NCBI RefSeq assembly: GCF_014775655.1
Contig: NZ_CP061274.1
Location: 62,001-126,000, forward strand
DNA: 64,000 nucleotides
Direction of reading: 5' to 3'
Source of the DNA: Clavibacter zhangzhiyongii
Lineage (GTDB): Bacteria > Actinomycetota > Actinomycetes > Actinomycetales > Microbacteriaceae
The position numbers were made by a program, and so were the translations under genes. Shown here one piece after another: positions 478 to 19,739 of the stretch (the stretch's first letter is position 1; each line of letters opens with the position of its first letter). The notes beneath the pieces were generated by a model. It was not told the origin of the DNA, made no database searches, and saw nothing but the letters and a program-made list of their open reading frames with translations.

Positions 478-579
478 CGGATCGATCCCGGCACCCGATG
501 AACGCCCGCCGCCCGCCGTGCGTATGCCCTGTCAGAAGCGGTGCCCGCTCGGGCGCCCCACCACGAGAGGCTGCACGCG

Positions 580-1290: not shown

Positions 1291-1295
1291 TCCCC

Positions 1296-1946
1296 GTGCA
1301 CCGCGGTCCGGCGGATGCGTCGCCCGCGCGGCGCGCCCGTCGGGCCACGGTGCTCGCGGCCGCGCTGATCCCGCTCGCCGTGCTGGCGGGATGCGCGCCC
1401 GCGGATCCGGCACCCGCTCCGGCGGCCCCTCCCGCGTCCGCGCCCCCGAACGCCGCGCCGAGCGCCCAGCCCACGACCGACCCCCAGGTCGTGCAGGGCC
1501 TCGGCGCGGTCCCGACCCGCGTCGCCATCCCCGCCATCGAGCTCGACGAGCCGCTCATCGACCTCGGCATCGCGCCCGACGGCCGGATGGAGGTGCCCGT
1601 CGACTTCGACGACGTCGGCTGGTTCACGGGCGGCGGTCGCCCCGGCGGACGCGGACCCACCGTGATCGCCGCGCACGTCGACTCGCGCGTGGGGCCCGCG
1701 GCGTTCGCCCGGCTCGCCGAGCTCGGCGTCGGCGACGAGGTGTCCGTGCAGGACGTCGACGGCGGCGCGACGCGCTACGCCGTGACCGAGGTCGCGGACT
1801 TCGCCAAGGCCGACTTCCCGACCGCGCGCGTCTTCGGCGCCCAGCCCACGGATCAGCTGCGCCTCATCACCTGCGGCGGGATCTTCGACCGCAGCGTCGG
1901 CCACTACGAGGACAACCGCGTCGTGTTCGCGGAGCCGGTCGGCTGA
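1296..1946 (+). CDS. Class F sortase
   Basis: A 216-residue transpeptidase expected outside the membrane. The N terminus has a basic stretch and a hydrophobic segment ending in LAVLAGC (possible lipobox Cys33), followed by an Ala/Pro linker (34-60). The catalytic domain spans about 70-216. His127 lies in TVIAAHVDSR, Cys193 in LITCGG, and Arg208 in YEDNRVVF is the likely third active-site residue. This is the short Gly-rich layout usual for actinobacterial class F sortases. GTG at 1296 has AGGAG 11 bp upstream, inside the end of the CHRD gene, so the two genes form an operon. Class F targets are poorly known. Confidence 0.85.
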   Translation: MHRGPADASPARRARRATVLAAALIPLAVLAGCAPADPAPAPAAPPASAPPNAAPSAQPTTDPQVVQGLGAVPTRVAIPAIELDEPLIDLGIAPDGRMEVPVDFDDVGWFTGGGRPGGRGPTVIAAHVDSRVGPAAFARLAELGVGDEVSVQDVDGGATRYAVTEVADFAKADFPTARVFGAQPTDQLRLITCGGIFDRSVGHYEDNRVVFAEPVG

Positions 1947-6887: not shown

Positions 6888-7307
6888 TCATCCGCGCGGC
6901 AGCCGCCCCGCGACCTCCCGCAGCACGTCCGCGTCCTCGTACGCCAGCTCCATCGCGACGGCCTCGTCGAGCGCGAACCACGCGACGCGCTGCCCCTCGG
7001 TGAGGCGGATCTCCTCCGCCGGCACGTCGAGCCGCGCCGCGAAGGTGTGCTCGATCCCGTAGGAGCGCGTGCGCGTGAGGAGGTGCGTCACCTCCTCGGC
7101 CGGGATCCGCGCGCCCAGCTCCTCCTCCACCTCGCGCACGACGCACGCGAGCGGCGTCTCGCCCGGCTCGAGCATCCCGCCGGGGACGGCCCACATCCCG
7201 GGGAAGGGGATGGTGGGGATGTCGTCGCGCAGCTGCAGCAGGATCCGCCCGGCCCGGTCGACGAGCACCACCTGGCATCCCTCGGCGGGGTCGGGCCCGT
7301 CGCTCAC
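6888..7307 (-). CDS. Nudix hydrolase
   Basis: A 139-residue protein with a complete Nudix box (GGMLEPGETPLACVVREVEEELGA region, matching G-x5-E-x7-RE-x2-EE-x-G) at about residues 46-68, preceded by MWAVPGG. It hydrolyses a nucleoside diphosphate linked to another group; the exact substrate is open (NTP, NDP-sugar, or oxidised nucleotide). GTG at 7305-7307 overlaps the stop of the MarR gene (GTGA), so the two are co-translated. The MarR protein may therefore control it. Confidence 0.85.
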   Translation of the reverse strand: MSDGPDPAEGCQVVLVDRAGRILLQLRDDIPTIPFPGMWAVPGGMLEPGETPLACVVREVEEELGARIPAEEVTHLLTRTRSYGIEHTFAARLDVPAEEIRLTEGQRVAWFALDEAVAMELAYEDADVLREVAGRLPRG

Positions 7308-7807
7308 GACCCCGCCGCCGCGTCCGGCCCGTCGATGGTGTGCGCCGTCATGGCGACGGCGGCGCGCGCGATGTCCTCCGCCGTCTCCTCCGTGCCGAGC
7401 GCGGGCGACGCGTGCAGCGCCACCGCCGCGGCGGCCCGGTAGTCGTCGGTCATCCGCGCGAGCGTCCTCCGTCCCGCGTCCGTGAGCTCGAGGAAGACGC
7501 TCCGGCGGTCCCGCGGGTTGGGCACGCGGCCGAGGTGGCCGGCGCCGACCAGCCGGTCGATCACGGCGGTCACCGCGCCCGTGCCCATGGAGATCTCGGA
7601 GGCCAGCATCTTGGGCGTCATCCGGCCGAGGTCGCCGACGACGCTGATCACCGTGAGGTCGGTCACGTTCACGCCGATGTCCTGCGCGATGCGGGTGCGG
7701 AGGTGCCGCTGGGCCGTCTCGACCATGTGCAGCGCGTTCGCGAGGGCCTCCACGGCCGTGGCGTCGTCGTCGCGGCGGCGGCGGGGAGCGGTTCTCTCCG
7801 GGGTCAT
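7304..7807 (-). CDS. MarR family transcriptional regulator
   Basis: A 167-residue regulator with a winged helix-turn-helix at about residues 50-115: recognition region PKMLASEISMGTGAVTAVIDRL, then wing GHLGRVPNPRDRRSVFLELT. The N-terminal 16 residues are Arg-rich and probably disordered. MarR proteins act as dimers that leave DNA on binding small aromatic ligands or on oxidation. Overlaps the Nudix gene. A MarR-type palindrome lies about 150 bp upstream at 7955-7975, suggesting autoregulation and possibly control of the divergent surface-protein locus. Confidence 0.85.
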   Translation of the reverse strand: MTPERTAPRRRRDDDATAVEALANALHMVETAQRHLRTRIAQDIGVNVTDLTVISVVGDLGRMTPKMLASEISMGTGAVTAVIDRLVGAGHLGRVPNPRDRRSVFLELTDAGRRTLARMTDDYRAAAAVALHASPALGTEETAEDIARAAVAMTAHTIDGPDAAAGS

Positions 7808-7954
7808 CGGGCGTCCCTGCGTCGGGGGCTCCGGGCGGGGTCCCGGATGCGGTCCAGCGACTGTAACGCGACACCGGCCGTCCCGTCCCCTGCGGCGGAC
7901 GCATGCCCCCCGGAGTGGGGACTTCGCACGATCCTGGAGTAGCTATACATTCGA

Positions 7955-7975
7955 GTTACTTGCAAAGCGAGTCAC
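7955..7975. promoter_or_regulatory. MarR-type operator between marR and the surface-protein locus
   Basis: Imperfect palindrome: GTTACTTGC, AAA, GCGAGTCAC (7 of 9 pairs match). Spacing and sequence resemble the ACTTGC-N3-GCAAGT sites of many MarR proteins. A minus-strand -10-like TATAGC (around 7942-7947) lies beside it, and a plus-strand TATACAT overlaps the same AT-rich patch, so one site could affect both directions. Inference from sequence only. Confidence 0.55.
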
Positions 7976-8034
7976 CAACTTCTCGTCGGGGGCTCACCCA
8001 GCCCCTTCCCCCTCTACGCACCCGGAGTCAGATC

Positions 8035-8697
8035 ATGTCGAACCACATCGCCCCCGCCGCCAAGACCAAGCGCGTCCGCTTCGCCCCCCTCGCCATCGCG
8101 ACCGGCGTCGCCGCCGCCGTCCTCCTCTCCGTCTCGATGTCCGGCACGCTGTCGGGCTTCGTGGCCTCGATCACCAACGACACCAACACCGCGGCCTCCG
8201 GCTCGCTCGTCATGCAGGAGTCGCAGGCCGGCGCCAACGGCGCCCCCACCGTCACCTGCCTCAGCACGAGCGCCGCGACCGGCGTCGACTCCAACGCCGC
8301 GACCTGCTCCACCATCAACAAGTTCGGCGGCTCGACCACGATGATCCCCGGCCAGACGGTCACGAGCGTCGTCAACATCAAGAACGTCGGCACCTCCAAG
8401 GCCTCGACCTTCACGCTGACCCCCGGCGCGGCCTGCACGCAGACCAAGAGCGGCACCGTCAACGGCACCGCCACGGACTTCTGCTCCAAGCTCAGCGTCG
8501 TCATCACCTCCGGCGGCGTCAACGTCTTCACCGGCACCGCCGCGACCCTCGCCGGCTCCTCCGCCAAGACGCTGACCGCCCTCGCCGCGAACGCGAGCAG
8601 CGACTTCACCTTCGCCGTCACGCTCGACTCCTCCGCCGGCAACACGTACCAGGGCCTCGCCGCCTCGCTGCCCCTCACCTGGACCTTCGCGGCCTAG
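8035..8697 (+). CDS. Secreted protein with SipW-cognate-like signal (surface locus 1)
   Basis: A 220-residue exported protein. Residues 1-45 form a long signal: basic AKTKRVRFAP, hydrophobic ATGVAAAVLLSVSMSGTLSGF, then VASITNDTNTAAS. This resembles the leaders of TasA/camelysin-type proteins cut by ER-type signal peptidases. The mature part is Thr/Ser/Ala-rich, beta-strand-like, with two probable Cys pairs (VTCLSTS, ATCSTIN, AACTQT, DFCSKL). ATG 8035 follows GGAG by 7 bp. The signal peptidase gene is next downstream, after a hairpin. Likely a surface or matrix subunit; no enzyme motif. Confidence 0.75.
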   Translation: MSNHIAPAAKTKRVRFAPLAIATGVAAAVLLSVSMSGTLSGFVASITNDTNTAASGSLVMQESQAGANGAPTVTCLSTSAATGVDSNAATCSTINKFGGSTTMIPGQTVTSVVNIKNVGTSKASTFTLTPGAACTQTKSGTVNGTATDFCSKLSVVITSGGVNVFTGTAATLAGSSAKTLTALAANASSDFTFAVTLDSSAGNTYQGLAASLPLTWTFAA

Positions 8698-8711
8698 CAC
8701 CCGCTCGACCC

Positions 8712-8737
8712 GGCGGGGCCGCCTCGGCGGCCCCGCC
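8712..8737 (+). terminator. Hairpin between surface subunit and signal peptidase genes
   Basis: Perfect 12-bp inverted repeat GGCGGGGCCGCC / GGCGGCCCCGCC separated by 2 nt, 14 bp after the stop of the secreted-protein gene and 48 bp before the peptidase gene. It may act as a partial terminator or an RNA-stabilising stem that favours expression of the subunit over the peptidase. Confidence 0.6.
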
Positions 8738-8785
8738 CACCCGCACGACCATCCCCTCTGAAGCCCCTGACCCGGGAGGTGCCCC

Positions 8786-9874
8786 ATGACCGACATCCAG
8801 GACCGCTCCACCGGCCCCGCGACCGACTCCGGCCGCACGGACGCCTCCGGCCGCACGGACGCCTCCGCGATCGACGCCCTCGAGCTCGACCTCCTCGAGC
8901 TGGACCTCCTCGAGCTCGACGTCGTCGAGCTGGAGCCCGTCGACCGGGATGCCGTCGCCCTGGACGTCGTCACGGAGGAGGCGGACCACGACCCCGCCTC
9001 CTCCGCCCTCCCCGCGCGCGGCGCCGCCCGTCGCGCCGCGCGCACCTCCCGCTCCTTCCGCCGCCGCACCGTCGTGATGTGGACGGCCACCGTCCTCCTC
9101 ACGCTCCTCGTCGCGGCGACGCTCCTCTTCCAGGCCTCCGGCGGCCGCTGGTTCGTCGTCCAGACCCCCTCGATGGGCACCACGGCCCCCGTCGGCACGC
9201 TGCTGCTCACCACCCCCGTGCTCGTCGAGGACGTCCAGCCCGGCGACGTCGTGAGCTTCCACCCCTCCACGACCCCCGACGAGACCTACACGCACCGCGT
9301 CATCGCGGTCGACGCCGACGGCCTCACCACGCAGGGCGACATCAACGGCGCGGTGGATCCGTGGAAGACCGACCAGCACCACCTCATCGGCCAGGCCACC
9401 ACGATCCTCCCCGGCTTCGGCTGGCTCGCGAAGGGCCTGCCGCTGATGCTCGCGGGCCTCGTCATCGTGACGATCCTCACCCGCCTCATCGCCTCGCCCA
9501 CGCACCGCGCCTCGATGCGCATGCTCGGCGGATCCCTCGTCGCGGCCCTCACCGTCTTCGTCCTGAAGCCCTTCGTCGGCCTCGTCGTCCTCGACGCCGT
9601 CACCGCCGGCACCGACGTGCGCGCCACCATCGTCAACACCGGCCTCCTGCCCATCCGGGTCGCGGCCGAGGGCGGCACCGCCACCTCCGTCGTCTCCGGC
9701 GCGGTCAGCACGATCACGGCCCCTGCGGGCGAGGCCGGCCAGTTCCACGACATCTCCTCCACCCTCGACCTGCCGCTCTGGGGCTGGGTCGTCTTCTACG
9801 GCCTCTGCGCCGTCCCCCTCCTCTACACGCTCGTCGTCGGCCTCCCCGCCGAGAAGGAGGGGCGCCGCGCATGA
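8786..9874 (+). CDS. ER-type (SipW-like) signal peptidase I with acidic Leu-repeat N terminus
   Basis: A 362-residue membrane peptidase. Residues 30-62 form an unusual repeat (LELDLLELDLLELDVVELE region), preceded by two SGRTDA repeats. TM1 is about 96-116. The catalytic domain has Ser129 in VQTPSMG, His170 in YTHRVIAV replacing the bacterial Lys, and Asp185 in QGDINGAVDPW: the Ser/His ER-type arrangement. Further helices lie near 214-233, 248-270 and 335-355. Expected to cleave leaders of the neighbouring secreted proteins outside the membrane. The long acidic cytoplasmic extension is not part of the normal family. ATGA overlap with the next gene. Confidence 0.85.
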   Translation: MTDIQDRSTGPATDSGRTDASGRTDASAIDALELDLLELDLLELDVVELEPVDRDAVALDVVTEEADHDPASSALPARGAARRAARTSRSFRRRTVVMWTATVLLTLLVAATLLFQASGGRWFVVQTPSMGTTAPVGTLLLTTPVLVEDVQPGDVVSFHPSTTPDETYTHRVIAVDADGLTTQGDINGAVDPWKTDQHHLIGQATTILPGFGWLAKGLPLMLAGLVIVTILTRLIASPTHRASMRMLGGSLVAALTVFVLKPFVGLVVLDAVTAGTDVRATIVNTGLLPIRVAAEGGTATSVVSGAVSTITAPAGEAGQFHDISSTLDLPLWGWVVFYGLCAVPLLYTLVVGLPAEKEGRRA

Positions 9875-10767
9875 GCGTCGTCGCCCGCCTCCTCCGCCGC
9901 ACCGCCGCATCCGACGCGCCCGCCGGCCCCCGCCGCGCCTCGCGCCTCGCCGGCATCGCCGCGGCCGTCTCCGCCGCCGCCCTCGGCGCCGTGCTGCTCC
10001 TCGCGCCCGGCACGAACGGCGCGTACACCGCCTCCATCAGGAACACGAACAACACGGCCGCGTCGTCCGCCGCCTTCTTCACCTGCTCGAGCGCCTTCGC
10101 GGCCGACCGGGCCGACGCGCTGTTCGCCTACCCGCTCAACGAGGCGACGGGATCCACGACCGCCGTCGACGCGGCGACCGGCGCCTACCCCGGCACCTAC
10201 CGCGGTGCCATGGCGAGCGACACGACCAGCACGCGGGCCTGCCCCCGCGACACCGGCGGCGCGTACGTGCTCGACGGCTCCGACTTCGTCACCAACGCCC
10301 TGCAGGCCCGCGGCCCGGCCGTGTTCAGCACCGAGGTGTGGTTCAAGACGACCGTCAAGGGCGGCAAGCTCATCGGCTTCGGCAACTCGCAGTCCGGCTC
10401 GTCGTCGGCCTACGACCGCCACACCTACATCTCCACGACGGGCCAGCTGGCGTTCGGCACCTACAACGGCGGGTACCAGACGATCGTGAGCCCCGCCAGC
10501 GTCGCCGACGGCGCCTGGCACCACGTCGTGGCCACGATGTCGTCCGCGGGCATGGTGCTCTACCTCGACGGCGCGCGCGTCGCCGGCAACGCCGCCTTCA
10601 CGGCGCCCGAGAGCAACAGCGGCTACTGGCGGATCGGCTACGACAACACGTCGGGCTGGCCGAACGCGGGATCCGCCTACTTCGTCGGCAGCATGCGCTT
10701 CGCCGCGGTCTACAAGACGGCGCTCACGCCGGCGCAGGTGCAGGCCCACTACACCGCCGGCCGCTGA
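9871..10767 (+). CDS. Secreted LamG-domain protein (surface locus 1)
   Basis: A 298-residue exported protein. The leader (1-55) has a basic start, a hydrophobic core and GAYTASIRNTNNTAAS, nearly the same post-core motif as the first gene of the locus. Residues about 80-298 are a concanavalin-like LamG fold: LFAYPLNEATG, FSTEVWFKT, GAWHHVVATMSSAGMVLYLDG, and a final FVGSMRFAAVYKTALTPAQVQAHY helix, the usual end of LamG/laminin_G_3 modules, which bind carbohydrate or protein ligands. ATG overlaps the peptidase stop, so they are coupled. Probably processed by that peptidase and exposed on the surface. Confidence 0.82.
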   Translation: MSVVARLLRRTAASDAPAGPRRASRLAGIAAAVSAAALGAVLLLAPGTNGAYTASIRNTNNTAASSAAFFTCSSAFAADRADALFAYPLNEATGSTTAVDAATGAYPGTYRGAMASDTTSTRACPRDTGGAYVLDGSDFVTNALQARGPAVFSTEVWFKTTVKGGKLIGFGNSQSGSSSAYDRHTYISTTGQLAFGTYNGGYQTIVSPASVADGAWHHVVATMSSAGMVLYLDGARVAGNAAFTAPESNSGYWRIGYDNTSGWPNAGSAYFVGSMRFAAVYKTALTPAQVQAHYTAGR

Positions 10768-10771
10768 CGCG

Positions 10772-10802
10772 ACGACGGACGGTCGTCGGACCGTCCCGTC
10801 GT
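10772..10802. terminator. Bidirectional hairpin between convergent genes
   Basis: Left arm 10772-10783, right arm 10790-10802, 12 pairs with one bulged base and a 6-nt loop. It lies between the LamG gene (+) and the SnoaL-like lipoprotein gene (-), placed to end both transcripts. Confidence 0.55.
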
Positions 10803-10834
10803 GGTGCGTCGTCTGTCGTCTGTCGTGCGTCGGA

Positions 10835-11812
10835 TCAGCTCGCGGGCACCACGTCCCAGTGCTCGCGGATGAGGCCGCCGTCGACGCGGAAGATGTCCGC
10901 GGCGAGGAACGGGTCGTCCGCCTTCGCGCCCACGGGCTGCGAGAAGGTCCAGACGAGGTCGCCGTCCGCGATCGAGATGACGGACTGCTGCGCCGGGAAC
11001 TGCGCGCCGCCCGAGAAGAACGCCTTCAGCGCCGCCGTGCCGTTCGCCGCGACGGCGTTGTGCTGGAGGTAGGCCGGGTCGAACGAGCGGTCGAGCACGC
11101 TCGCGTCGTGATCCCGGAACAGGGTGTCGTAGGCGCCCACGGCCAGCTGCCGGTCCGCCTCCTCCTGCTGCTCGGTGGGCGGGGCCTGGTCGTCGGATCC
11201 CCGGTAGAGGTCGCTGAACATCGTGTTGGTGTTGCCGCTCGCGGGGGTGCCCTGCGCGATGGGCTGGTCGAAGGACCAGGTCTCGGTGACCTTGCCGTCG
11301 GCGAGGCGGAAGAGGTCGACCGCGGCCTCGCCGGTGCGCTCGTCGTCCGGGTTCGAGGCGACCTGCCAGTGCACGGCGACGAGGTCGCCGTCGGCCGCAA
11401 TGTGCTTGATGACGGCCTGGGCGCCGGGGACGCGCTGGTGCGCGGCGTCGAACCCGGCGAGGACGCCGCCGGGGCCGGCCTTCGCGCCCGTGCCGTGCGC
11501 CGTGGCGTCGGGGGCGACGGCCGCGAGGGCGGCGGCCTGCGCGGCGTCGGATCCGGGGTCGGGGAACGCCGTCTCGAAGAGCGTCGAGATGACCTCGGCG
11601 TTCGCGTCCTCCGTGGCGGAGTCGGCGCGGTCGGCCGTGGTGCCGCCGTCGCCCGCGGAGGCGGATGCCGCGACGGCGGAGGTCGCGTCGGGGGCGGACC
11701 CGGGCGAGGCGGACGCCAGCCCGGGGGCCTGGCAGCCGGCGAGGACCACCACTCCGGCGAGGGCGGCCGTGCCGCGGAGGAGCAGGGATGCGGGGGTTCG
11801 TTGAACGTTCAT
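10835..11812 (-). CDS. Lipoprotein with two SnoaL-like (NTF2-fold) domains
   Basis: A 325-residue precursor. Signal with lipobox LAGC (VVVLAGCQAP) near residue 26, then an Ala/Ser/Asp-rich linker to about residue 70. Two related domains follow (about 73-185 and 200-325). Both carry the pattern of SnoaL-like polyketide-cyclase folds: a helix, H-x-F/FDAAH or YLQHN, an aspartate-bearing GDLVAVHW or GDLVWTF strand, and a final DLFRLADGKVTETWSF or DIFRVDGGLIREHWDVV strand. The second repeat supports an internal duplication. No catalytic role can be assigned. ATG 11812 chosen for the lipoprotein signal. Confidence 0.78.
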   Translation of the reverse strand: MNVQRTPASLLLRGTAALAGVVVLAGCQAPGLASASPGSAPDATSAVAASASAGDGGTTADRADSATEDANAEVISTLFETAFPDPGSDAAQAAALAAVAPDATAHGTGAKAGPGGVLAGFDAAHQRVPGAQAVIKHIAADGDLVAVHWQVASNPDDERTGEAAVDLFRLADGKVTETWSFDQPIAQGTPASGNTNTMFSDLYRGSDDQAPPTEQQEEADRQLAVGAYDTLFRDHDASVLDRSFDPAYLQHNAVAANGTAALKAFFSGGAQFPAQQSVISIADGDLVWTFSQPVGAKADDPFLAADIFRVDGGLIREHWDVVPAS

Positions 11813-11995
11813 GCACGTACCCTGCGACCCGCGGCTGGGAGGGTCCGATGTGCATGGATGCCGCGTCCATCGGGGCTTCCTGGTACGGCGTGGCCGCCGG
11901 GGATCGCACCGGTCCCGCGCGCCCGCCCGAACGCACGTCGGCTCCGAAGGCCACGCACCGGGACCCGAGTCGCCCGGCAGGGGCCCTCTCGCTGC

Positions 11996-12130
11996 GCATG
12001 CGAGGGGGCTTCCCTGCGTCAGGGGCGCGCGTCGTCGGCGGCCGCGTGCGAGGGGCTTGCCTGCGTCGGGGCGCGCGCGTCGTCGGCGCCGCATGCGAGG
12101 GGGCTTCCCTGCGTGCGGGGGGGGGCGCCG
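11996..12130. repeat. Imperfect ~47-bp tandem repeat, about 2.8 units
   Basis: Units begin at 11996, 12044 and 12091. Each starts GCRTGCGAGGGGGCTTSCCTGC and continues into a GGGGCGCGCG-CGTCGTCGGC block; the third degenerates into a run of G. Located in the 412-bp gap between two minus-strand lipoprotein genes, upstream of the SnoaL-like gene. No gene was seen in the gap; it also holds the hairpin at 12155-12195. Confidence 0.65.
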
Positions 12131-12154
12131 TCGGTCTGCGACGACGCCGGACGC

Positions 12155-12195
12155 ACGACGAACGGCCCGGCGTCGAGGGCCGGGCCGTGCGTCGT
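12155..12195 (-). terminator. Long hairpin after lipoprotein gene
   Basis: 17-bp stem with one mismatch (arms 12155-12171 and 12179-12195, 7-nt loop), 30 bp beyond the stop of the minus-strand lipoprotein gene at 12225. Strong factor-independent terminator candidate without a U-tract. Confidence 0.7.
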
Positions 12196-12224
12196 GCTGT
12201 CCGGGGCGTGCCCGGGTCGGGGTG

Positions 12225-12917
12225 CTACTTGGTGTTGACGGTGATCTTGGCGATGCCGACGACGAGCTCGTCGGTGACGGCGTCGGTGCCGAAGGTGCTG
12301 TTCAGCAGGGCGGCGGCGTCGGGGCTGACCTTGACCGTGGTGCCCTCGAGGACGGCGTTGTCGCCCTCCATGGCGAGGGGCTTCAGGGTCGTGCCGTCGA
12401 GGTTGAAGATGTAGACGTCGTTCATGATCTCGCCCTCGCCGACCTGGACCGAGCCCGTGAGGCGGCTGGTGCCGGGGTCGATGACGAAGTCGGTGAGCTT
12501 CACGACGGTGTCGCCGGCGGTGAGGCTGATGCCGGAGCCGTCGTGGTCGATCTCGCCCTGGACGTAGGGGCGGTAGTCCATCTCGGGGTCGAAGTACTTC
12601 ACGTTGCCGCCGGTGATGGGGAACGCGAGGGTGCCGGTGGCGCCGTCGAGGGTCGCGCCGCCGATGACGCCGGGGGTCAGGCCCAGGGTCGTGAGGGCGC
12701 CGGTGAAGCCGGAGTCGAGGGTGACCTTGGTGTCGACGCCGGTGAGGGTCGGGATCGTCGCGAGCGGCGTGGGGTTCGCCTCGGTCGTGGCCGACGCGGA
12801 CGGCGCGGCGGACGAGGAGGACGACGGGCTCTCGGCGGGGGTCGAGCAGGCCGCGAGGCCGACGACGAGGAAGCCCGCGGTGGCGAGGCCGAAGACGGAC
12901 TTGGTGAGGTTGCGCAT
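12225..12917 (-). CDS. Putative lipoprotein of unknown function
   Basis: A 230-residue precursor. Lipobox LAAC at about residues 21-24 (VVGLAACSTP), then a Ser/Ala/Thr/Pro-rich linker to about residue 55. The remainder looks all-beta: TKVTLDSGFTGAL, GTLAFPITGGNVKYFD, GEIDHDGSGISLTAGDTVVKLTDFVIDPGTSRLTGSV and a late VVGIAKITVNTK. The blocks on HxGxGxxL and FVIDPGTSxLTG recall HtaA-like or other secreted beta-domains in actinobacteria, but I cannot assign one. It has its own terminator and a 159-bp upstream gap before the surface locus 2 genes. Confidence 0.7.
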   Translation of the reverse strand: MRNLTKSVFGLATAGFLVVGLAACSTPAESPSSSSSAAPSASATTEANPTPLATIPTLTGVDTKVTLDSGFTGALTTLGLTPGVIGGATLDGATGTLAFPITGGNVKYFDPEMDYRPYVQGEIDHDGSGISLTAGDTVVKLTDFVIDPGTSRLTGSVQVGEGEIMNDVYIFNLDGTTLKPLAMEGDNAVLEGTTVKVSPDAAALLNSTFGTDAVTDELVVGIAKITVNTK

Positions 12918-13076
12918 GGTGTTTCCTTATGGTCAGGGCGGCCGACGTGGTCGCCGGTTGGAGTCGCAAGGTCCTTCGGCGCCCCTCGCCGGACGGTTGG
13001 GTCCCGTGATGCTTTCGTGACCTGCGCGGCCCGTCGACCGGCGTCACGGCCCCGTCACGGGCGACCGCGGGAGGGT

Positions 13077-13745
13077 TCAGCGCTGCGTGCCCGGGCGCTG
13101 CTCGCCGTCGACCCGGAGCGTCACGGATCCGCCGACGCCCTGCGCGGCCGGCGGCGCGGAGGTCGCGAGCCGGACCGTGAGGCGCAGGTGGTCGCGGCCG
13201 CCGACCGCGCGCGCGGGCGAGTCCGCCAGCGCGACGCGGCCCTGCGCCGGGCGGTCGGCGGCCACGGCGGTGATCGTGCCCGCGCAGGTGGCGGTGCCCG
13301 GGGCGCCGGTCCAGGCGACGGAGCAGCGGTCGAGCGCGACCTGCAGGCCGTCGGAGGTGCTCGCGACCGGGGTGCCGCCGAGGGTCAGCATCAGCTGCGG
13401 GGCGGCGACCGTGCCCGTGTTGGCGAGGTCGACCAGCCGCACCTGCGCGTCGCCGGGGCGGAGGCCCGTCACCGGCACGGCGAGCTGATCCGCGCCGCCG
13501 CCGCCCCAGTCGAGCTCGACGGCGCCGGCGCCCACGGTCGTGGAGGTGGTCGCGCGGTCGGCGAGCACGGCGTAGGCGGTGCCGGAACCCGCGATCGCGA
13601 GGGCGACGGCGATCGCGGGGACGAGCAGCGGGCGGAGGCGGCGGGCGGAGCCGGCCGGGCGCGCGGCGGCGCGGCGGCCGTGGGGGAGGGGGGTCGCGGG
13701 ATCCGCGGCGGGCGCGGGTGCGGCGCGGTGCCGGGCGCCGGCCAT
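13077..13745 (-). CDS. Secreted protein with SipW-cognate-like signal (surface locus 2)
   Basis: A 222-residue exported protein. The N terminus is Arg/Ala/Pro-rich for about 40 residues, then a hydrophobic core LLVPAIAVALAIAGSGTAYAVLADRATTSTT, similar to TasA/camelysin-type leaders. The mature part is beta-rich (VELDWGGGGADQLAVPVTGLRPGD, VRLVDLANTGTVAAPQLMLTL), a pattern seen in SipW-dependent subunits, with one Cys pair (DRCSVAW, ATCAGT). ATG 13745 overlaps the stop of the upstream signal peptidase gene by one base (TGATG), so it is coupled to it. Confidence 0.72.
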   Translation of the reverse strand: MAGARHRAAPAPAADPATPLPHGRRAAARPAGSARRLRPLLVPAIAVALAIAGSGTAYAVLADRATTSTTVGAGAVELDWGGGGADQLAVPVTGLRPGDAQVRLVDLANTGTVAAPQLMLTLGGTPVASTSDGLQVALDRCSVAWTGAPGTATCAGTITAVAADRPAQGRVALADSPARAVGGRDHLRLTVRLATSAPPAAQGVGGSVTLRVDGEQRPGTQR

Positions 13746-14365
13746 CAGGCGGATCCGCCCGTCGTGCGGGCGGCCGCGGATGCGGCCTCGACGGGTGCTG
13801 CTTCGACCCCGGCGTCCGCGGGCGCCGCGGGGCGCCGCCAGATCGCGGCCAGCGCCCACGCGGTGGCGCCCGCGCCCACGACGGCGAAGGCGATCATCCG
13901 CACGAGCGGGTCGCCGAGCCACACGAAGGGCCAGCCGAGGAACGGGACCACCGAGGTGCGCTCCCAGACGGCGTCGTCGCCGATGGTGACGATCCACGGA
14001 TCGCCCGAGGGGTTGTTGTCGCCCTTCGTCTCGATGGCCAGCCGGTCGGCCGACCAGCCCTCGAGCCGCTCGGCGTCCTCGGGCCCGAAGACGCGGGTGA
14101 CCCGGTGGATGACGCGCACCCGCGGGCCGACCGGGGCCGTGAACACGACGACGTCGCCGACCGCGACGTCCGCGCGCGGGACCGGGGCGGTGACCGCCAT
14201 CGAGCCCACCGGCATGCCGGGCGCCATCGAGTCCGAGAGCACGGGGACGAAGCGGGTGATCCCGAGCGCGGAGAGGCCGATGACCGCGATGACGGCCAGG
14301 GCGACCGCGGCGGTGGCGAGGCCGCCGAGCACGCCGAGCGCGCGGCGGGCCGGGGAGCGGGTCAC
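13745..14365 (-). CDS. ER-type (SipW-like) signal peptidase I
   Basis: A 206-residue membrane peptidase. TM1 is about 10-36. Ser46 (VLSDSMAPGM) is the nucleophile, His87 (VIHRVTRV) takes the place of the usual lysine, and Asp116 (IETKGDNNPSGDPW) completes the ER-type signature. A second helix (about 152-172) and an Ala/Pro tail follow. GTG at 14365 overlaps the stop of the LPVTG-protein gene (GTGA). Second such peptidase within 6 kb; this one lacks the acidic repeat extension of the first. Likely serves the TasA-like and related leaders of this operon. Confidence 0.87.
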   Translation of the reverse strand: MTRSPARRALGVLGGLATAAVALAVIAVIGLSALGITRFVPVLSDSMAPGMPVGSMAVTAPVPRADVAVGDVVVFTAPVGPRVRVIHRVTRVFGPEDAERLEGWSADRLAIETKGDNNPSGDPWIVTIGDDAVWERTSVVPFLGWPFVWLGDPLVRMIAFAVVGAGATAWALAAIWRRPAAPADAGVEAAPVEAASAAARTTGGSA

Positions 14366-15147
14366 GAGGCGGTCCCGGGGTCGCGGCGGCGCCGGCGCGA
14401 GGCGAGGAGGAGGATCCCGCCGCCGAGGAGCGCGAGCAGGGCGCCGACGACGGCCGAGGCGACGTCGCGGCCGGTGACGGGGAGCAGGTCGTGCGGCGCG
14501 TCGGCGGACGGCGCGGACGCGGCGGGCGCGAGGGGGCCGCCGCCGGGCGCGTCGACGCCGGGGACCGGCACGGCGCCCGCGTCGTCGGCCAGCGCGAAGG
14601 AGATGCGGAGGCGGCCGTCGGTGGACTCCATCCGGTTGTCCGCCTCGGCGGGGAAGCGGACGCGCACGGCGACGCCGACGGTCTCGCCCGGCTCGAGCGG
14701 GGTGCTCGTGACGATGCCGTCGAGGGTGGCGGCGGGACCGGATCCGAGCGGCTCGACGGCGCCGCGGCAGCGCATGGGTGCGGAGAGGGAGGTGAAGCCG
14801 CCCTCGCAGAGCCGGACGGCGAGCTGGAGGCCGCCGCCGGGATCGCCGGTGAGGGCCATCGACGTGGCCGCGTCGATGCGGACGGCGAGCGGCGAGCCGT
14901 CGCCGGAGACGTTGGTGACCTGGGCGGCCCAGTCGACCGTGTCGCCGGGCGCGAGGTCGTCGAGGGGGATCTCGGGGCCGGTCAGCTCCTGCACCTCGAG
15001 GGCGGGCGCGGCAGCGGCGGGCGCGGCGACGGAGGCGCGGGCGACGGCCTCGGCGGGGGCGACGGCGGCGACGGCCGGCGTCGCGGCGACCAGCGCCAGG
15101 CACAGCGCGGCGGCGGCGATGGTGCCGGGGCCGCGGTGGGGGCGCAT
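14362..15147 (-). CDS. LPXTG-type wall-anchored surface protein
   Basis: A 261-residue precursor. Signal peptide at about 1-28. The mature region 50-185 is a beta-rich domain with QVTNVSGDGSPLAVRIDA and LEPGETVGVAVRVRFPAEADNRMEST, as in DUF11/SipW-operon proteins. A Pro/Ala/Gly spacer leads to a clear sorting signal: LPVTG at residues 222-226, a hydrophobic helix, then RRRRR. It should be linked to peptidoglycan by a sortase. ATG 15147 has GAGGATC upstream. It lies between the TasA-like gene and the signal peptidase gene, all on the minus strand. Confidence 0.83.
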   Translation of the reverse strand: MRPHRGPGTIAAAALCLALVAATPAVAAVAPAEAVARASVAAPAAAAPALEVQELTGPEIPLDDLAPGDTVDWAAQVTNVSGDGSPLAVRIDAATSMALTGDPGGGLQLAVRLCEGGFTSLSAPMRCRGAVEPLGSGPAATLDGIVTSTPLEPGETVGVAVRVRFPAEADNRMESTDGRLRISFALADDAGAVPVPGVDAPGGGPLAPAASAPSADAPHDLLPVTGRDVASAVVGALLALLGGGILLLASRRRRRDPGTAS

Positions 15148-15228
15148 GTTGGGATCCTCGGGGTGGGGCGTGCGGGACGGACGGGGCGGGTCGTGCGAGG
15201 TCGAGCGGGTCGTGCGGGTGGGACCCGC

Positions 15229-15256
15229 CCGGGCCCCGGCGCGTGCCGGGGCCCGG
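15229..15256 (-). terminator. Hairpin after the TasA-like gene
   Basis: Perfect 12-bp stem CCGGGCCCCGGC / GCCGGGGCCCGG with a 4-nt loop, 10 bp beyond the stop of the gene at 15267 and 81 bp before the next gene start. Placed, as in locus 1, between the abundant-subunit-type gene and the downstream anchor and peptidase genes. Confidence 0.7.
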
Positions 15257-15266
15257 ACGGACGGGA

Positions 15267-15968
15267 TCAGCGCTGCAGGCCGTCGCGCTGGATCGCGGCT
15301 GCCGTGAACGTCAGCTGGGCCGAGGCGTTCTCGTAGTCGTTGTCCGCGGTGTCCGGCAGCTGCAGGACCATCAGGGTGTCGAGCTCGAGGGCCGCGCCGT
15401 CGCTCGGGAAGGTGCCGTCGGCCGTCGGCGTGACGCCGAAGTCGGCGGGCGCGAGGGTGGTGGAGTTGCCCGCGCCGGTGATGGACGCGAGCGTGCCGGT
15501 GCCCGTCTCCTCCACGGTGCCCGAGCACGTGTAGGCGCCGACCGGGTCGGTGGCCGAGGTCCAGTCGCCGCCGACGCAGGTCTGCAGCGAGTAGGTGAGG
15601 CCGTCGACCCCGGTGACGAGGGACTCGCCGCCGCCCGGGAGCGCCGCGTCGTCCGTCCCGAGCGTCTCCGCCGTGACCGCGTAGGACAGCTCCACGGCTG
15701 CCACGAGGTCCCCGTCGTTGGTCGCGTCCGGCAGCGCCAGGAGGATCTCCCGCTGCACGGTGTCCCCGGGCGCGATGTCGGCGACCGTGTACGAGCCGGT
15801 GGCGACGATGTCGAGCTGGCCCGCGTCGGCCTGCAGGGTGGCCGTGTCGGAGTCGGTGAAGATGGCGAACGCCCCGCCGGTGACGATCGCGCCGACGGCG
15901 ACGACCGCGCCGGTGGCGACGATCTTGTTCCACGGGCGGCGGCGCGCGGGGGCTGTGGTGGTGCTCAT
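15267..15968 (-). CDS. TasA/camelysin-like secreted subunit with SipW-cognate signal
   Basis: A 233-residue exported protein. The leader RRRPWNKIVATGAVVAVGAIVTGGAFAIFTDSDTA has the ATG-x-G-hydrophobic-FAIFTDSDT form that defines SipW-cognate signals. The mature part (about 45-233) matches the TasA-like layout: LDIVATGSYTVADIAPGDTVQREILL, a paired Cys stretch (TCVGGDW, TCSGTV), and a final LPDTADNDYENASAQLTFTAAAIQ strand. Bacillus TasA forms amyloid-like matrix fibres; this protein may polymerise similarly but that is inference. ATG 15968 follows AGAGGAA. Confidence 0.85.
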   Translation of the reverse strand: MSTTTAPARRRPWNKIVATGAVVAVGAIVTGGAFAIFTDSDTATLQADAGQLDIVATGSYTVADIAPGDTVQREILLALPDATNDGDLVAAVELSYAVTAETLGTDDAALPGGGESLVTGVDGLTYSLQTCVGGDWTSATDPVGAYTCSGTVEETGTGTLASITGAGNSTTLAPADFGVTPTADGTFPSDGAALELDTLMVLQLPDTADNDYENASAQLTFTAAAIQRDGLQR

Positions 15969-16020
15969 GGTGGTTCCTCTCGATGGGTGTCGCGGTGCGC
16001 GGTGTGCGCGGGTCGTGCTG

Positions 16021-16044
16021 CTGGTGCTGGTGCTGGTGCTGGTG
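16021..16044. repeat. Hexanucleotide repeat (CTGGTG)x4 upstream of the TasA-like gene
   Basis: Four exact CTGGTG units at 16021-16044 flanked by partial copies (GTGCTG before, GTGCGG after), 53-76 bp upstream of the TasA-like start, in its 5' region. A slippage-prone tract in this position could tune promoter spacing or leader structure. Confidence 0.6.
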
Positions 16045-16120
16045 CGGTGATGGGCTGCCCCGGCGGGGCGTGTCGCCGCATCCGGGGGCGGATGCGGCAC
16101 GGGGGGTCGAGGGGCGGGCA

Positions 16121-19100
16121 TCAGCAGCCCGCCGCGGAGACGGCCGCCGGCTGGGCGACCGCGGAGGAGGGGGCGCTCGGGATGCCGACCCAGCGCTGCA
16201 GGTCGGGACGCACGCGCCACTGGTAGGAGCGGGACTCGCCGAGCCGGTCGTCCGAGAACGTCGTCGCGGCACCGGCGAGGCGGGCGACCGTGATCCAGGC
16301 GCCCGGGGCGGTGCCCGCGACGCGGCGCTCGACGAGGAGGTCGGTCGCGCCGGGGATCGCGGCCCACGCGACGGCGGTGACGGGCCGGCCGGCGACGCAG
16401 CTCGCGGCCGCCGAGGTCACGGTGGTCGTCGAGGTCCAGCTGCCGGTGGAGGCGCCGAGCGTCGCGTCATCCCGGTGCGTGAACCCGCGGGGCACGAGCG
16501 GCGCGGGATCCAGGAACACCGTGATCGTGGATGACGCGACGATCCCGGTGGCGGGCGCCGCCGGCCGGTCGGTGATCGAGTACGCGACCGCGAAGGACCC
16601 CGCGGCCCCCGACGTCGGCGCCCGGTACGTGCACAGGTCGGCCGCGCAGGAGAAGGACCCGGGGATCCCGCCGGGCGGCACGGCGCCGGTGACCGCGAGC
16701 GCGTCGCCGTCCGCGTCGGTGTCGTTCGCGCGCGGGTCGAGGGTGACCGCGGGGCCGCCGATCGTCGCCACGAGGCGGTCGGCGCGCGCCACGGGGGCGC
16801 CGTTCAACGGCGTGACCGTGATGGTGACGCGCACGTTCCACGTGCCCGCCGCGCCCTGCAGCGCGTAGTCGAAGACGTCGACGCCCGTGAACCCGACGGC
16901 GGACCGGTAGGTGCAGCGCCCGCGCTCCGTGCCGCTCGCGACGCACGTGGCGCTGCCGGCGGTCGGCGACGCGGGCACGGGACCCGCGGCGCCGCCGACG
17001 AGGATCGGGGTCGCCGAGAGCTGCGCGCGGCTGAGGGTCGCGCCCGTGGCCGCGCGGCCGTCGTTCGCGAGGACGTCGATCACGACGGGGACGCCCTGCG
17101 GAGTGGTCGCGGAGTCGGGCAGCGGATCCGGCACGGCCTGCACGGTCGCCGTCGCGGTGGCCTGCACCGGCCCGGTCGGCGCGGTCGCCGTGGCCGTCGC
17201 GGTGTTGACGATGGATCCCGCCTGCACGTCGGCCGCCGTGGCCGTGTACGTGGCGGTCGCCGTGACGACCTGGCCGGGCGCGAGGGTCCCCGCGGTGCCG
17301 GGCCAGGTGTACGCCAGGGCGGAGACGCCGGTGCGCGGATCCGCGATGGCGACGTTCGTCAGCGTGGTGGAACCGGTGTTCCGCAGCCGGAACGCGTAGG
17401 TCACCACGCCGCCTGCGGCCGGCACGTTCTGCGTCGACGCCGTCTTCTGGAGGTCCATGGTCGCGGTGCGGGTGAGCGGCACCGTGGCGCTGGCCGTCGA
17501 CTGCACCGCGACGCCGCCCGCGCTGGCGCCGCGCGCGGTGGCCGTGTTCGCGACCTGCCCGGCGTCGACGTCGGCCTGCCGCACGGTGTAGCCCGCGGTC
17601 GCCGTGACGGACTGGCCGACGGCGAGGGTCCCCGCGGTGCCGGGCCAGGCGTACGTCACGCTCGAGAGCCCGGGCAGCGGATCCGTGAGCGCCACCCCGG
17701 TGAGCGGCACGGAGCCGCTGTTGCGGAGGACGAAGGAGTACGCGACGGTCGCGCCCGGCCCGCTGCCCGTGAGCGTCGCGGTCTTGGTGAGCGCGATCGC
17801 CGCGGCGCCGGCGACGGGCGTGCTGGTGCTCGAGGTCGCCGTCGGCGCGGCCTGCCCGGCGAAGGTGCGCCCGGAGACGGTGGCGGTGTTGACGATCGGC
17901 GTCGCGGCGTCCACGTCGGCCTGGGTCACGACGTACGCGGTCGACGTGAAGGCCTGCGTGGCGCCCGGCGCGAGGGTGACGCTGGCCGGGCTGATGCCCG
18001 TGACGCGCGGATCGGCCACCGCCACCTGGTACAGCGACACGTTCCCGGAGTTCCGCGCCTGGAACGCGTACGCGATCCGCTCGCCGACGTCCGCCCGCCC
18101 GTTGCCGTTCGCGTCGGCGAGCGTGCCCGTCTTGGTGAGCGTCAGCCCCGGGGCGGGCGCGACGATCGGCACGGTCACGGAGCTCGTGTTGCTCGTGACG
18201 CCGAAGAGCAGCGTGTTGACGCCGCGCGCGCTCGCGGTGTTGACGAGGGTGCCGGACATCGCCTCCGCCGGCGTCACGACGTGACCGCCCACGCAGGTCG
18301 TCGAGGCCCCGATGAGGAGCAGGCCCAGCCCCAGCAGCATCCCGGGGCACGTGACGGACGGCACCAGGGGATCGGTCACCGTCAGGTTCGAGAGGACGAC
18401 CCCGCCCGTGTTGCTGAGCACGAACTGGTACGGGACCGTCTGCCCCTCGGCGTACGCCGCCGGCTGCGGGTTCGTGCGGTCCACCTGCTTCACGAGGTTG
18501 AGCGGGCTGAGGTCATCGATGCTCGAGACGCTCACCTCGCGGATCAGGTGCGTGTCGGTGAACGAGCCCGTGGAGGCGAGGTAGCCGAGCTTGTAGGAGG
18601 AGGGGGCGGCCGTGGTCATCGTGTACTGCAGCACCCGCGTGAGCGAGGCGGCCGACGCCCCCGCGGTGGCGCCCGCGTAGACCGTGACGACCGGGAAGCG
18701 CGCGGGCGAGACGGTGATCCGGATCCTGCGCCCGAGGTCGGCGGTGGGCGTGCTCAGCGTCGTGGTCGCGCGGAGCGACGTCGACGGCCGTGCGCCGGCG
18801 AGGTAGCAGTACCCGCTCGTGCCCGTGCCGGGGCCGCGCAGCGCGATGGTGTCGGGGCTGGCGAGGACGCCGGCGGTGACGCAGCCGGTGCCGCGGCCCT
18901 CGGTGCCGCTGGAGAAGTTGCCGTACGCGTCGAGGCCGACGCCGAGGTAGCCGCCGGCCACGCCCGGGACGTTCGTGGTCTGGGCGTAGCCGAGGGATCC
19001 GCCGGCGGCGCCCGCCGAGGTGAGCGGCACGGATCCGTCCGTGAGGAAGAAGCCGATGCCGTCCGCGCCACCCGAGGAGGTGCCGTACTGGTACTGGTCG

Positions 19101-19519
19101 AACGTGATGTCGAGGCCGCCGCTCGCGGGGATGGCCGAGTCGTAGACCACGCCGCCCACGGCGCTCGGGCGGTTGTCGGTGAGCTGCAGGGCGCCCGGGT
19201 TCGCGCTGGCGGGAGGCGCCTGGGTGCGGCTGCCGCACACGCCCAGCGTCGAGCTGCCGCTGGCCGGGGCGGAGGTCGCGCGGGTCAGGCAGGCGCTGCC
19301 GAGCGGCTTCCACGCGGGATCGGTGACGCTCGCGCCGGCGAACGACTCGCGGATCAGCTGCGACGCGGCCGTGGCGGTCTGCGCCGGCAGGCTCACGAGG
19401 AGGGCGGCGCCCACGGCGGCCGCCACGAGCGCGGCGACGCGGCGGAGCACCGGGCGCGATCGCGGTCCGCGGACGGTGCGGGACGGCTCGGCGGCATGGC
19501 GCGCACGCGCTCGATCCAC
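16121..19519 (-). CDS. Giant secreted adhesin-like protein: lectin-like domain plus DUF11-type repeats
   Basis: About 1,132 residues. Signal core VLRRVAALVAAAVGAALLVSLPAQTATAA near 24-52. A legume-lectin-like domain (about 54-310) carries ITFDQYQYGTSSGGADGIGFFLTDG. Four or five DUF11/DUF7507-type repeats (about 320-800) have LTKTxTL openings, YxFxxRNxG, LTxVxxxDP and NTATA endings. Two cadherin-like modules follow (VDVFDYALQG; DTDADGDALAVTG), then a fibronectin-like C-terminal region ending in Cys. No LPXTG or membrane anchor was seen. Start uncertain: GTG 19519 has AGGGGG 8 bp upstream; GTG 19450 gives a cleaner signal without a ribosome site; longer starts run to 19729. Probably adhesive. 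Confidence 0.8.
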   Translation of the reverse strand: MDRARARHAAEPSRTVRGPRSRPVLRRVAALVAAAVGAALLVSLPAQTATAASQLIRESFAGASVTDPAWKPLGSACLTRATSAPASGSSTLGVCGSRTQAPPASANPGALQLTDNRPSAVGGVVYDSAIPASGGLDITFDQYQYGTSSGGADGIGFFLTDGSVPLTSAGAAGGSLGYAQTTNVPGVAGGYLGVGLDAYGNFSSGTEGRGTGCVTAGVLASPDTIALRGPGTGTSGYCYLAGARPSTSLRATTTLSTPTADLGRRIRITVSPARFPVVTVYAGATAGASAASLTRVLQYTMTTAAPSSYKLGYLASTGSFTDTHLIREVSVSSIDDLSPLNLVKQVDRTNPQPAAYAEGQTVPYQFVLSNTGGVVLSNLTVTDPLVPSVTCPGMLLGLGLLLIGASTTCVGGHVVTPAEAMSGTLVNTASARGVNTLLFGVTSNTSSVTVPIVAPAPGLTLTKTGTLADANGNGRADVGERIAYAFQARNSGNVSLYQVAVADPRVTGISPASVTLAPGATQAFTSTAYVVTQADVDAATPIVNTATVSGRTFAGQAAPTATSSTSTPVAGAAAIALTKTATLTGSGPGATVAYSFVLRNSGSVPLTGVALTDPLPGLSSVTYAWPGTAGTLAVGQSVTATAGYTVRQADVDAGQVANTATARGASAGGVAVQSTASATVPLTRTATMDLQKTASTQNVPAAGGVVTYAFRLRNTGSTTLTNVAIADPRTGVSALAYTWPGTAGTLAPGQVVTATATYTATAADVQAGSIVNTATATATAPTGPVQATATATVQAVPDPLPDSATTPQGVPVVIDVLANDGRAATGATLSRAQLSATPILVGGAAGPVPASPTAGSATCVASGTERGRCTYRSAVGFTGVDVFDYALQGAAGTWNVRVTITVTPLNGAPVARADRLVATIGGPAVTLDPRANDTDADGDALAVTGAVPPGGIPGSFSCAADLCTYRAPTSGAAGSFAVAYSITDRPAAPATGIVASSTITVFLDPAPLVPRGFTHRDDATLGASTGSWTSTTTVTSAAASCVAGRPVTAVAWAAIPGATDLLVERRVAGTAPGAWITVARLAGAATTFSDDRLGESRSYQWRVRPDLQRWVGIPSAPSSAVAQPAAVSAAGC

Positions 19520-19592
19520 CTCGACCACCCCCTGGACGTCGCCCTCCCGGAGGAGCGGCGCGAGGCCCCCCGGCCTCGCCTCGGCAACGGTA

Positions 19593-19604
19593 GATCGGCC
19601 GATC
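19593..19604. promoter_or_regulatory. Palindrome upstream of giant surface protein gene
   Basis: Perfect 12-bp palindrome GATCGGCCGATC, 74 bp upstream of the chosen start; TAGATCG at 19591 also recurs inverted as CGATCTA at 19629-19635. Possible regulator site for the minus-strand gene. No regulator can be named. Confidence 0.35.
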
Positions 19605-19714
19605 ACCAGGGGAAAAGGGACCCAGTGGCGATCTAGGTGAACCAGTAGCCCCCGTTCCGGGACCCAGGCCCCCCGACCGAGGCGCACCCAGCGGCGCATC
19701 CCGGTGGATCCTGT

Positions 19715-19739
19715 GAGTTGAGCCGACATCGCTCAACTC
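19715..19739. promoter_or_regulatory. HAIR operator 1 (HspR site)
   Basis: Perfect 9-bp inverted repeat GAGTTGAGC-N7-GCTCAACTC, close to the known HspR-associated inverted repeat CTTGAGT-N7-ACTCAAG. It lies just upstream of the dnaK -35 element. HspR is encoded at the end of the operon it would repress. Confidence 0.85.

What the first reader, a model, noticed from the sequence alone, without database searches (positions are those of the whole stretch)
8035..19519. Two adjacent SipW/TasA-like surface-fibre loci with two different ER-type signal peptidases
Within 11.5 kb there are two Ser/His (ER-type) signal peptidases, at least three small secreted proteins with SipW-cognate-like leaders, a LamG protein, an LPVTG-anchored protein and an 1.1-kaa lectin/DUF11 repeat protein. 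The parts list resembles a matrix-fibre assembly line (subunit, processing peptidase, wall anchor, adhesive tip) but does not match Bacillus tapA-sipW-tasA in gene content. This is my main candidate for a poorly described system.
Basis: partly seen in the sequence, partly recalled or inferred. Interest (0 to 1): 0.72.

Follow-up and report, generated by a model that had tools for sequence, protein, structure and literature searches.

The report
Two separate TasA-like fibre gene clusters
Side by side in a Clavibacter genome lie two independent gene sets that each look built to make a protein fibre on the cell surface with its own processing enzyme; one of them is a conserved three-gene cassette in which the enzyme carries an extra domain that may help start the fibre.

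Summary
Locus A (8035-10767, +): A1, a secreted subunit whose predicted fold matches TasA fibres best although sequence models miss it; A2, an ER-type signal peptidase with an added Ig-like domain; A3, a LamG protein. A1-A2-A3 stands in this order in 65 of 66 related loci with enough sequence; A2 and A3 are fused in five. A1 and A3 share a mature N-terminus, read here as a donor strand. Locus B (19729-13077, -): a DUF7507 surface protein, two camelysin subunits, a wall-anchored subunit copy without that strand, a second ER-type peptidase. In 398 family genomes the A1 family occurs in 42 and the B2 family in 17; they lie 6.3-6.6 kb apart in all 7 Clavibacter genomes with both on one contig, but far apart or on other contigs in three Rathayibacter. 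Most likely: two independent TasA-like fibres with private peptidases, A3 capping fibre A, B3 anchoring fibre B. Homology, gene order and predicted fold are shown; polymerisation, tip and anchor roles and peptidase specificity are inferred. New variant of a known kind.

The parts
7304..7807 (-). MarR-type regulator gene, divergent from A1
   Evidence: Divergent homologue (>=40 bits to this MarR) next to A1 in 56 of 78 loci with >=1.2 kb upstream; 3 of the other 22 (L115, L123, L126) have a MarR-like ORF by eye. In the 12 family loci with full-length A2 (window included): 10 of 12. That it controls A is inference.
8035..8697 (+). A1: TasA-fold secreted subunit, 220 aa, four conserved Cys (75, 91, 134, 150)
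8155..8202 (+). Proposed mature N-terminal segment of A1 (G41 to G56): proposed donor strand
   Evidence: F+2, A+4, I+6, N+8 in 77 of 77 A1 sequences; the same segment in A3. Cut site and donor-strand role are inference.
8712..8737 (+). Stem-loop directly after A1 (12-nt perfect arms, 2 nt between)
   Evidence: I16. Stem >=10 bp within 90 nt after the A1 stop in 47 of 73 loci, 34 distinct left arms; controls 1 of 77 inside A1, 6 of 70 inside A2, 2 of 70 at the end of A2, 17 of 66 after A3.
8786..9874 (+). A2: ER-type signal peptidase with extra TM - Ig-like domain - TM
   Evidence: PF10502 29.2 bits, cut-off 22.9; model mean pLDDT 82.7; catalytic part 118-216 matches signal peptidases; beta domain 265-329 between helices 238-260 and 331-351; G286, P289, G305 invariant in 35 rows.
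9871..10767 (+). A3: LamG protein with the leader class and mature N-terminus of A1; start overlaps the A2 stop (ATGA)
   Evidence: PF13385 1.3e-21; hhalign to A1 96.5% over 49 N-terminal columns only; fused to A2 in L155, L158, L159, L160, L161.
16121..19729 (-). B1: large surface protein: weak L-type lectin match, 4 DUF7507, 2 Big_9, conserved C-terminus ending in GC
   Evidence: all six B1 proteins examined end in GC, although the L083 copy has a different N-terminal part.
15267..15968 (-). B2: TasA/camelysin subunit
   Evidence: PF12389 35.9 bits, cut-off 22.5; B2-B5 hhalign 97.6%.
15225..15260 (-). Stem-loop directly after B2 (16-nt arms, 94% complementary)
   Evidence: (I10); seen in the window only, conservation not tested.
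14362..15147 (-). B3: subunit paralogue with LPVTG anchor, ordinary-looking leader, no donor-strand-like N-terminus
   Evidence: tblastn B2 to B3 27.8% over 162 aa, E 1.8e-4; hhalign B2-B3 91.6%, B5-B3 90.9%; anchor models below their cut-offs: NF058582 18.8 of 27, TIGR01167 14.9 of 15.9.
13745..14365 (-). B4: ER-type signal peptidase, 206 aa
   Evidence: TIGR02228 64.3 bits, over its cut-off; orthologues in G034, G109, G083, G116.
13077..13745 (-). B5: second TasA/camelysin subunit
   Evidence: PF12389 26.5 bits, cut-off 22.5.

Best explanation
Two independent TasA-like fibre systems, each with a dedicated ER-type signal peptidase. In A, A2 cuts the leaders of A1 and A3. Mature A1 has a TasA-type jelly-roll and a free N-terminal strand (G-F-x-A-x-I-x-N) that would complete the fold of the next A1, so A1 polymerises by donor-strand exchange. 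A3 carries the same strand on an unrelated LamG domain, so it could donate but not accept and would cap one fibre end with a binding head, as TapA shares the TasA donor-strand motif in Bacillus. The Ig-like domain of A2 would hold or pair the first subunits at the membrane. A stem-loop after A1 would keep A1 in excess over A2-A3. In B, B4 cuts B2 and B5, which would form the fibre; B3, a subunit copy without the strand but with LPVTG, would be the wall-bound acceptor at the base; B1 would be the adhesin. Shown: homology, predicted fold, gene order, fusions, shared N-termini, stem-loops. Inferred: polymerisation, tip and base roles, peptidase specificity, function of the Ig-like domain, use of the stem-loops.
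For: Fold of A1. Camelysin matches of B2 and B5. Profile links B2-B5 97.6%, B2-B3 91.6%, B5-B3 90.9%, A1-B5 81%. Cassette order in 65 of 66 loci and in all 12 loci with full-length A2 (11 fetched plus the window). A2-A3 fusions in 5 of the 70 A2 ORFs recovered, with a small-residue cut site and the A3 mature motif kept in all 5 (one of the 70, L087, runs on in a wrong frame and is no fusion). Shared A1/A3 N-terminus: hhalign 96.5% over 49 N-terminal columns; a matrix of A1 positions +2 to +16 beats all 100 shuffles in 55 of 68 A3 proteins and in 0 of 7 other secreted proteins. Catalytic residues invariant. Stem-loop counts. The full B operon stands without A in the 19 kb of L082. TapA/TasA precedent: PMC9674648 and PMC10151520 (passages).
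Confidence: 0.6

Rival explanations
1. A1 is a secreted or surface-coat protein of TasA-like fold that does not polymerise; A2 is only its private signal peptidase and A3 a separate secreted LamG protein of the same export class.
Against: The conserved segment runs about 15 residues beyond the proposed cut site, past the -3 to +1 region that signal peptidases are known to read (recalled); the nearest folds are fibre subunits; A1-A2-A3 linkage is nearly absolute.
Confidence: 0.25
2. A3 is a membrane-bound LamG protein that works with A2 at the membrane (as the fused forms suggest), not a fibre tip.
For: A2-A3 fusions in L155, L158, L159, L160, L161.
Against: All five fusions keep a small-residue cut site before the mature segment, so the LamG part could be released (by eye); L158 and L161 also have a separate A3 gene; A3 is a separate gene in the other loci with A2 and A3.
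Confidence: 0.2
3. The 11.5 kb is one system: a single fibre built from subunits of both loci.
For: Adjacent, at nearly constant distance, in 7 of 7 Clavibacter genomes with both on one contig.
Against: A1 family in 42 of 398 genomes, B2 family in 17, both in 11 (8 Clavibacter, 3 Rathayibacter); in the three Rathayibacter they are not close (1.3 Mb apart in G773; different contigs in G562 and G653). Leaders of the two loci differ by eye, and the A1 segment matrix does not find B2, B3 or B5.
Confidence: 0.08
4. Ordinary sortase-assembled pili.
For: LPVTG in B3; two sortases in the genome, one at window 1524-1940.
Against: Among the locus A and B proteins only B3 has a sorting-like signal; no sortase gene inside either operon.
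Confidence: 0.04

Closest known systems
Bacillus subtilis tapA-sipW-tasA
   Same: SipW peptidase with a TasA-fold subunit; a second protein sharing the subunit's N-terminal strand (TapA there, A3 here); TapA has a V-set Ig domain (PMC10151520, passages) and A2 carries an Ig-like domain.
   Different: No protein here hit a model named TapA; the Ig-like domain sits inside the peptidase; the strand-sharing partner is a LamG protein; four conserved Cys in A1; different leader motif; a divergent MarR gene, against SinR control there (passage).
Bacillus cereus sipW-calY/tasA with CapP
   Same: Two camelysin subunits beside one SipW, sortase-independent (PMC13082335, abstract and section list; operon named in a passage of PMC10151520); resembles B2, B5, B4.
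   Different: B has a wall-anchored subunit paralogue and a 1.2-kaa DUF7507 protein in the same operon.
Clostridium perfringens sipW-bsaABCRSD
   Same: Peptidase and subunit in one operon; a predicted terminator gives a short sipW-bsaA transcript plus readthrough (PMC7395162, passages), comparable to the stem-loop after A1.
   Different: Order peptidase-subunit; no LamG partner and no Ig-like domain in the peptidase mentioned in the passages seen.
[quoted passage not shown]
   Different: Archaeal; its own paper is not held and was not read.
Streptococcus pyogenes SipA (4n31)
   Different: A2 keeps the Ser and His of an active ER-type peptidase and has the extra Ig-like domain.

Membership tests
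TasA/camelysin subunit (PF12389) - A1 | TasA jelly-roll fold | tested here: met
TasA/camelysin subunit (PF12389) - A1 | Score over the Pfam gathering cut-off | tested here: not met
   No PF12389 hit for the window A1 at E <= 1; 2 of 31 family members match at E <= 0.01, best 9.5e-4. So A1 folds like a camelysin but is not filed as PF12389.
TasA/camelysin subunit (PF12389) - A1 | SipW-cognate leader (TIGR04088) | tested here: not met
   No hit for A1 at E <= 1; 0 of 31 members at E <= 0.01.
TasA/camelysin subunit (PF12389) - B2 and B5 | Score over the Pfam gathering cut-off | tested here: met
   35.9 and 26.5 bits against 22.5.
TasA/camelysin subunit (PF12389) - A1, B2, B5 | Forms fibres by donor-strand exchange | not testable with these tools
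   Needs protein and electron microscopy.
ER-type signal peptidase I (TIGR02228) - A2 | Score over the curated cut-off | tested here: inconclusive
   50.9 bits against 51.85 in hmmscan; 53 bits, over the cut-off, in the genome search.
ER-type signal peptidase I (TIGR02228) - A2 | Ser and His catalytic residues | tested here: met
   S129 and H170 invariant in 35 rows (window plus 34 of 47 non-redundant ORFs, fused and badly started ones left out).
ER-type signal peptidase I (TIGR02228) - B4 | Score over the curated cut-off | tested here: met
   64.3 bits.
tapA-sipW-tasA operon | A TapA gene | tested here: inconclusive
   None of the ten proteins scanned hit a model named TapA; no dedicated TapA search was run; an Ig-like domain is present within A2.
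Sortase-assembled pilus | Pilin-type sortase gene in the cluster | tested here: not met
   The two PF04203 matches of the genome are at C1:14887-15279 and window 1524-1940, not within either operon.

The most novel reading that the evidence does not exclude
A2 is peptidase and fibre initiator in one polypeptide: its Ig-like domain does the work of TapA, catching freshly cut A1 and pairing it with the A3 strand, so that processing, nucleation and tip attachment happen in one membrane complex. In some lineages peptidase, Ig-like domain and LamG tip are a single protein that could cut itself. This would be a new way to couple leader cleavage to fibre nucleation, private to locus A and separate from the two other ER-type peptidases over the cut-off in the same genome.
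Probability: 0.3. Interest if true: 0.75.

Novelty: new variant of a known kind. Interest (0 to 1): 0.58.

Why it matters
In the papers listed here TasA-kind fibres are studied mainly in Bacillus. Ten searches of an open-licence library (lists capped, for example 20 of 433) showed no title or abstract start that describes the A cassette; papers outside that library were not seen. If right, a conserved three-gene cassette with a subunit that standard models miss gives many plant- and soil-associated actinobacteria a donor-strand fibre with a LamG end. The A2-A3 fusions and the strand shared by A1 and A3 make it directly testable how leader cleavage is coupled to fibre initiation. One genome with three ER-type peptidase loci and three leader styles is also a natural test of peptidase specificity.
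Full report
What is there. The window lies at C1:62001-126000 of a 3.1-Mb one-contig genome. Its A1 protein is 87-92% identical to seven Clavibacter loci, so the genus is taken to be Clavibacter. Locus A (+): A1 8035-8697, A2 8786-9874, A3 9871-10767. Locus B (-): B1 19729-16121, B2 15968-15267, B3 15147-14362, B4 14365-13745, B5 13745-13077; B3-B4-B5 overlap, the other gaps are about 120-150 nt. Between the loci lie a SnoaL-type lipoprotein gene (10835-11812, -) and another lipoprotein gene (12225-12917, -), both present in the two other same-genus loci.

Families. Pfam and NCBIfam: B2 and B5 are camelysins over the cut-off, B4 an archaeal/ER-type peptidase over the cut-off, A2 an S26 peptidase, A3 a LamG protein, B1 has DUF7507 and Big_9 domains. 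The window A1 has no hit near a cut-off. In its 31-member family, at E <= 0.01, Pfam gives Cohesin for 3, CARDB for 2, PF12389 for 2, fn3_5 and NPCBM_assoc for 1 each, NCBIfam TIGR01451 for 2: scattered weak hits to beta-sandwich families.

A is a conserved cassette. Of 120 family genomes, 12 hold a full-length A2, and all 12 loci (11 fetched plus the window) have A1-A2-A3. A scan of one genome per species gave 90 relatives of A1; 80 were kept, mostly Microbacteriaceae by title, also Arthrobacter, Paenarthrobacter, Pseudarthrobacter, Microlunatus and Actinomycetospora. In 65 of 66 of these loci with at least 2.6 kb downstream, A2 and A3 follow A1 in order; the exception, L163, is A1-A3-A2. In five loci A2 and A3 are one ORF of 566-586 aa, each keeping a small-residue cut site and the motif [FL]-x-A-x-[IV]-x-N. 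A3 of L099 and L142 has an extra insert between leader and LamG.

Shared mature N-terminus. Aligned on the motif, A1 (77 of 77) and A3 (55 of 68 by regular expression) agree not only at the motif positions, which the expression forces, but also at -3 (T), +9 (S), +11 (N), +12 (T), +13 (A) and +14 (A), which it does not. Profile comparison of A1 (31 rows) and A3 (24 rows, chosen from 66) gives 96.5% over the leader and this segment only; B2 against A3 gives 1.9%. A matrix from A1 positions +2 to +16 beats all 100 shuffles in 55 of 68 A3 proteins and in 0 of 7 controls (B2, B5, B3, three third-locus proteins, one further secreted protein). In Bacillus, TapA shares the donor-strand motif of TasA and is thought to give the first strand (PMC9674648 and PMC10151520, passages). 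By analogy A3 would donate but not accept.

Stem-loops. A stem of at least 10 bp follows the A1 stop in 47 of 73 loci, with 34 different left arms, against 1 of 77, 6 of 70 and 2 of 70 in coding controls and 17 of 66 after A3. By folding energy 44 of 67 have z below -2, against 10 of 70 inside A2 and 21 of 66 after A3; the window's own z is -1.5. In the window a similar stem follows B2 and a shorter one precedes it. This fits an excess of the subunit over peptidase and tip; termination or stabilisation was not shown.

A and B are separate. In 398 family genomes, at E <= 1e-20, the A1 family is in 42 (9 of 85 genera) and the B2 family in 17 (3 of 85 genera) (handles show the same draw). Ten same-genus genomes are listed: A1 in 9, B2 in 9, both in 8; on one contig in 7, always 6.3-6.6 kb apart on opposite strands (the eighth, G719, has them on different contigs of a draft). 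G687 lacks A1; G746, a draft, lacks B2. In the genus of G045 (Rathayibacter, by a contig of equal length) B2 is in 7 and A1 in 4 listed genomes, both in 3, never close: 1.3 Mb apart in G773, on different contigs in G562 and G653. The complete B operon stands in L082 with no A cassette in the 19 kb fetched, and B1-B2-B4-B5 in L083.

Third line. A further ER-type peptidase with three secreted proteins lies at about C1:1229735-1232720. Leader styles differ by eye: A G-F-x-A-S-I-T-N, B A-F-A-I-F-T-D, third locus S-F-A-L-W-N. That the peptidases are private to them is inferred.

Standing. Works like a TasA/SipW fibre locus: likely. Member of PF12389: yes for B2 and B5, not by score for A1.

Noticed in passing
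G000 C1 about 1229735-1232720 (L005 about 7736-10720, -): Third ER-type signal peptidase locus with three secreted proteins whose leaders read FALWN-like; one of them matches PF12389.
   Followed up: partly
window 541-1946 (+): Secreted protein with a C-terminal membrane helix (CHRD-like by eye, recalled) directly before a sortase (PF04203, 73.3 bits); the nearer of the genome's two sortases to locus B.
   Followed up: partly
window 16121-19729 C-terminus; L071, L072, L082, L083, L087: All six B1 proteins examined end in GC with a similar last 100 residues, while the N-terminal part differs in L083; the last Cys is unexplained.
   Followed up: partly
L137 544-3499: Two A1-type genes around one A2, followed by another peptidase-like stretch.
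   Followed up: no
G016, G592, G647: Genomes with three A1-family matches each, so the subunit family has paralogues.
   Followed up: no
window 8872-8957: Near-palindromic repeat coding for an acidic LELDLLELD stretch at the A2 N-terminus, low confidence in the model; its length varies between Clavibacter sequences.
   Followed up: no
window 12153-12197: 19-nt, 95% complementary inverted repeat just downstream of the lipoprotein gene (12225-12917, -); looks like a terminator.
   Followed up: no
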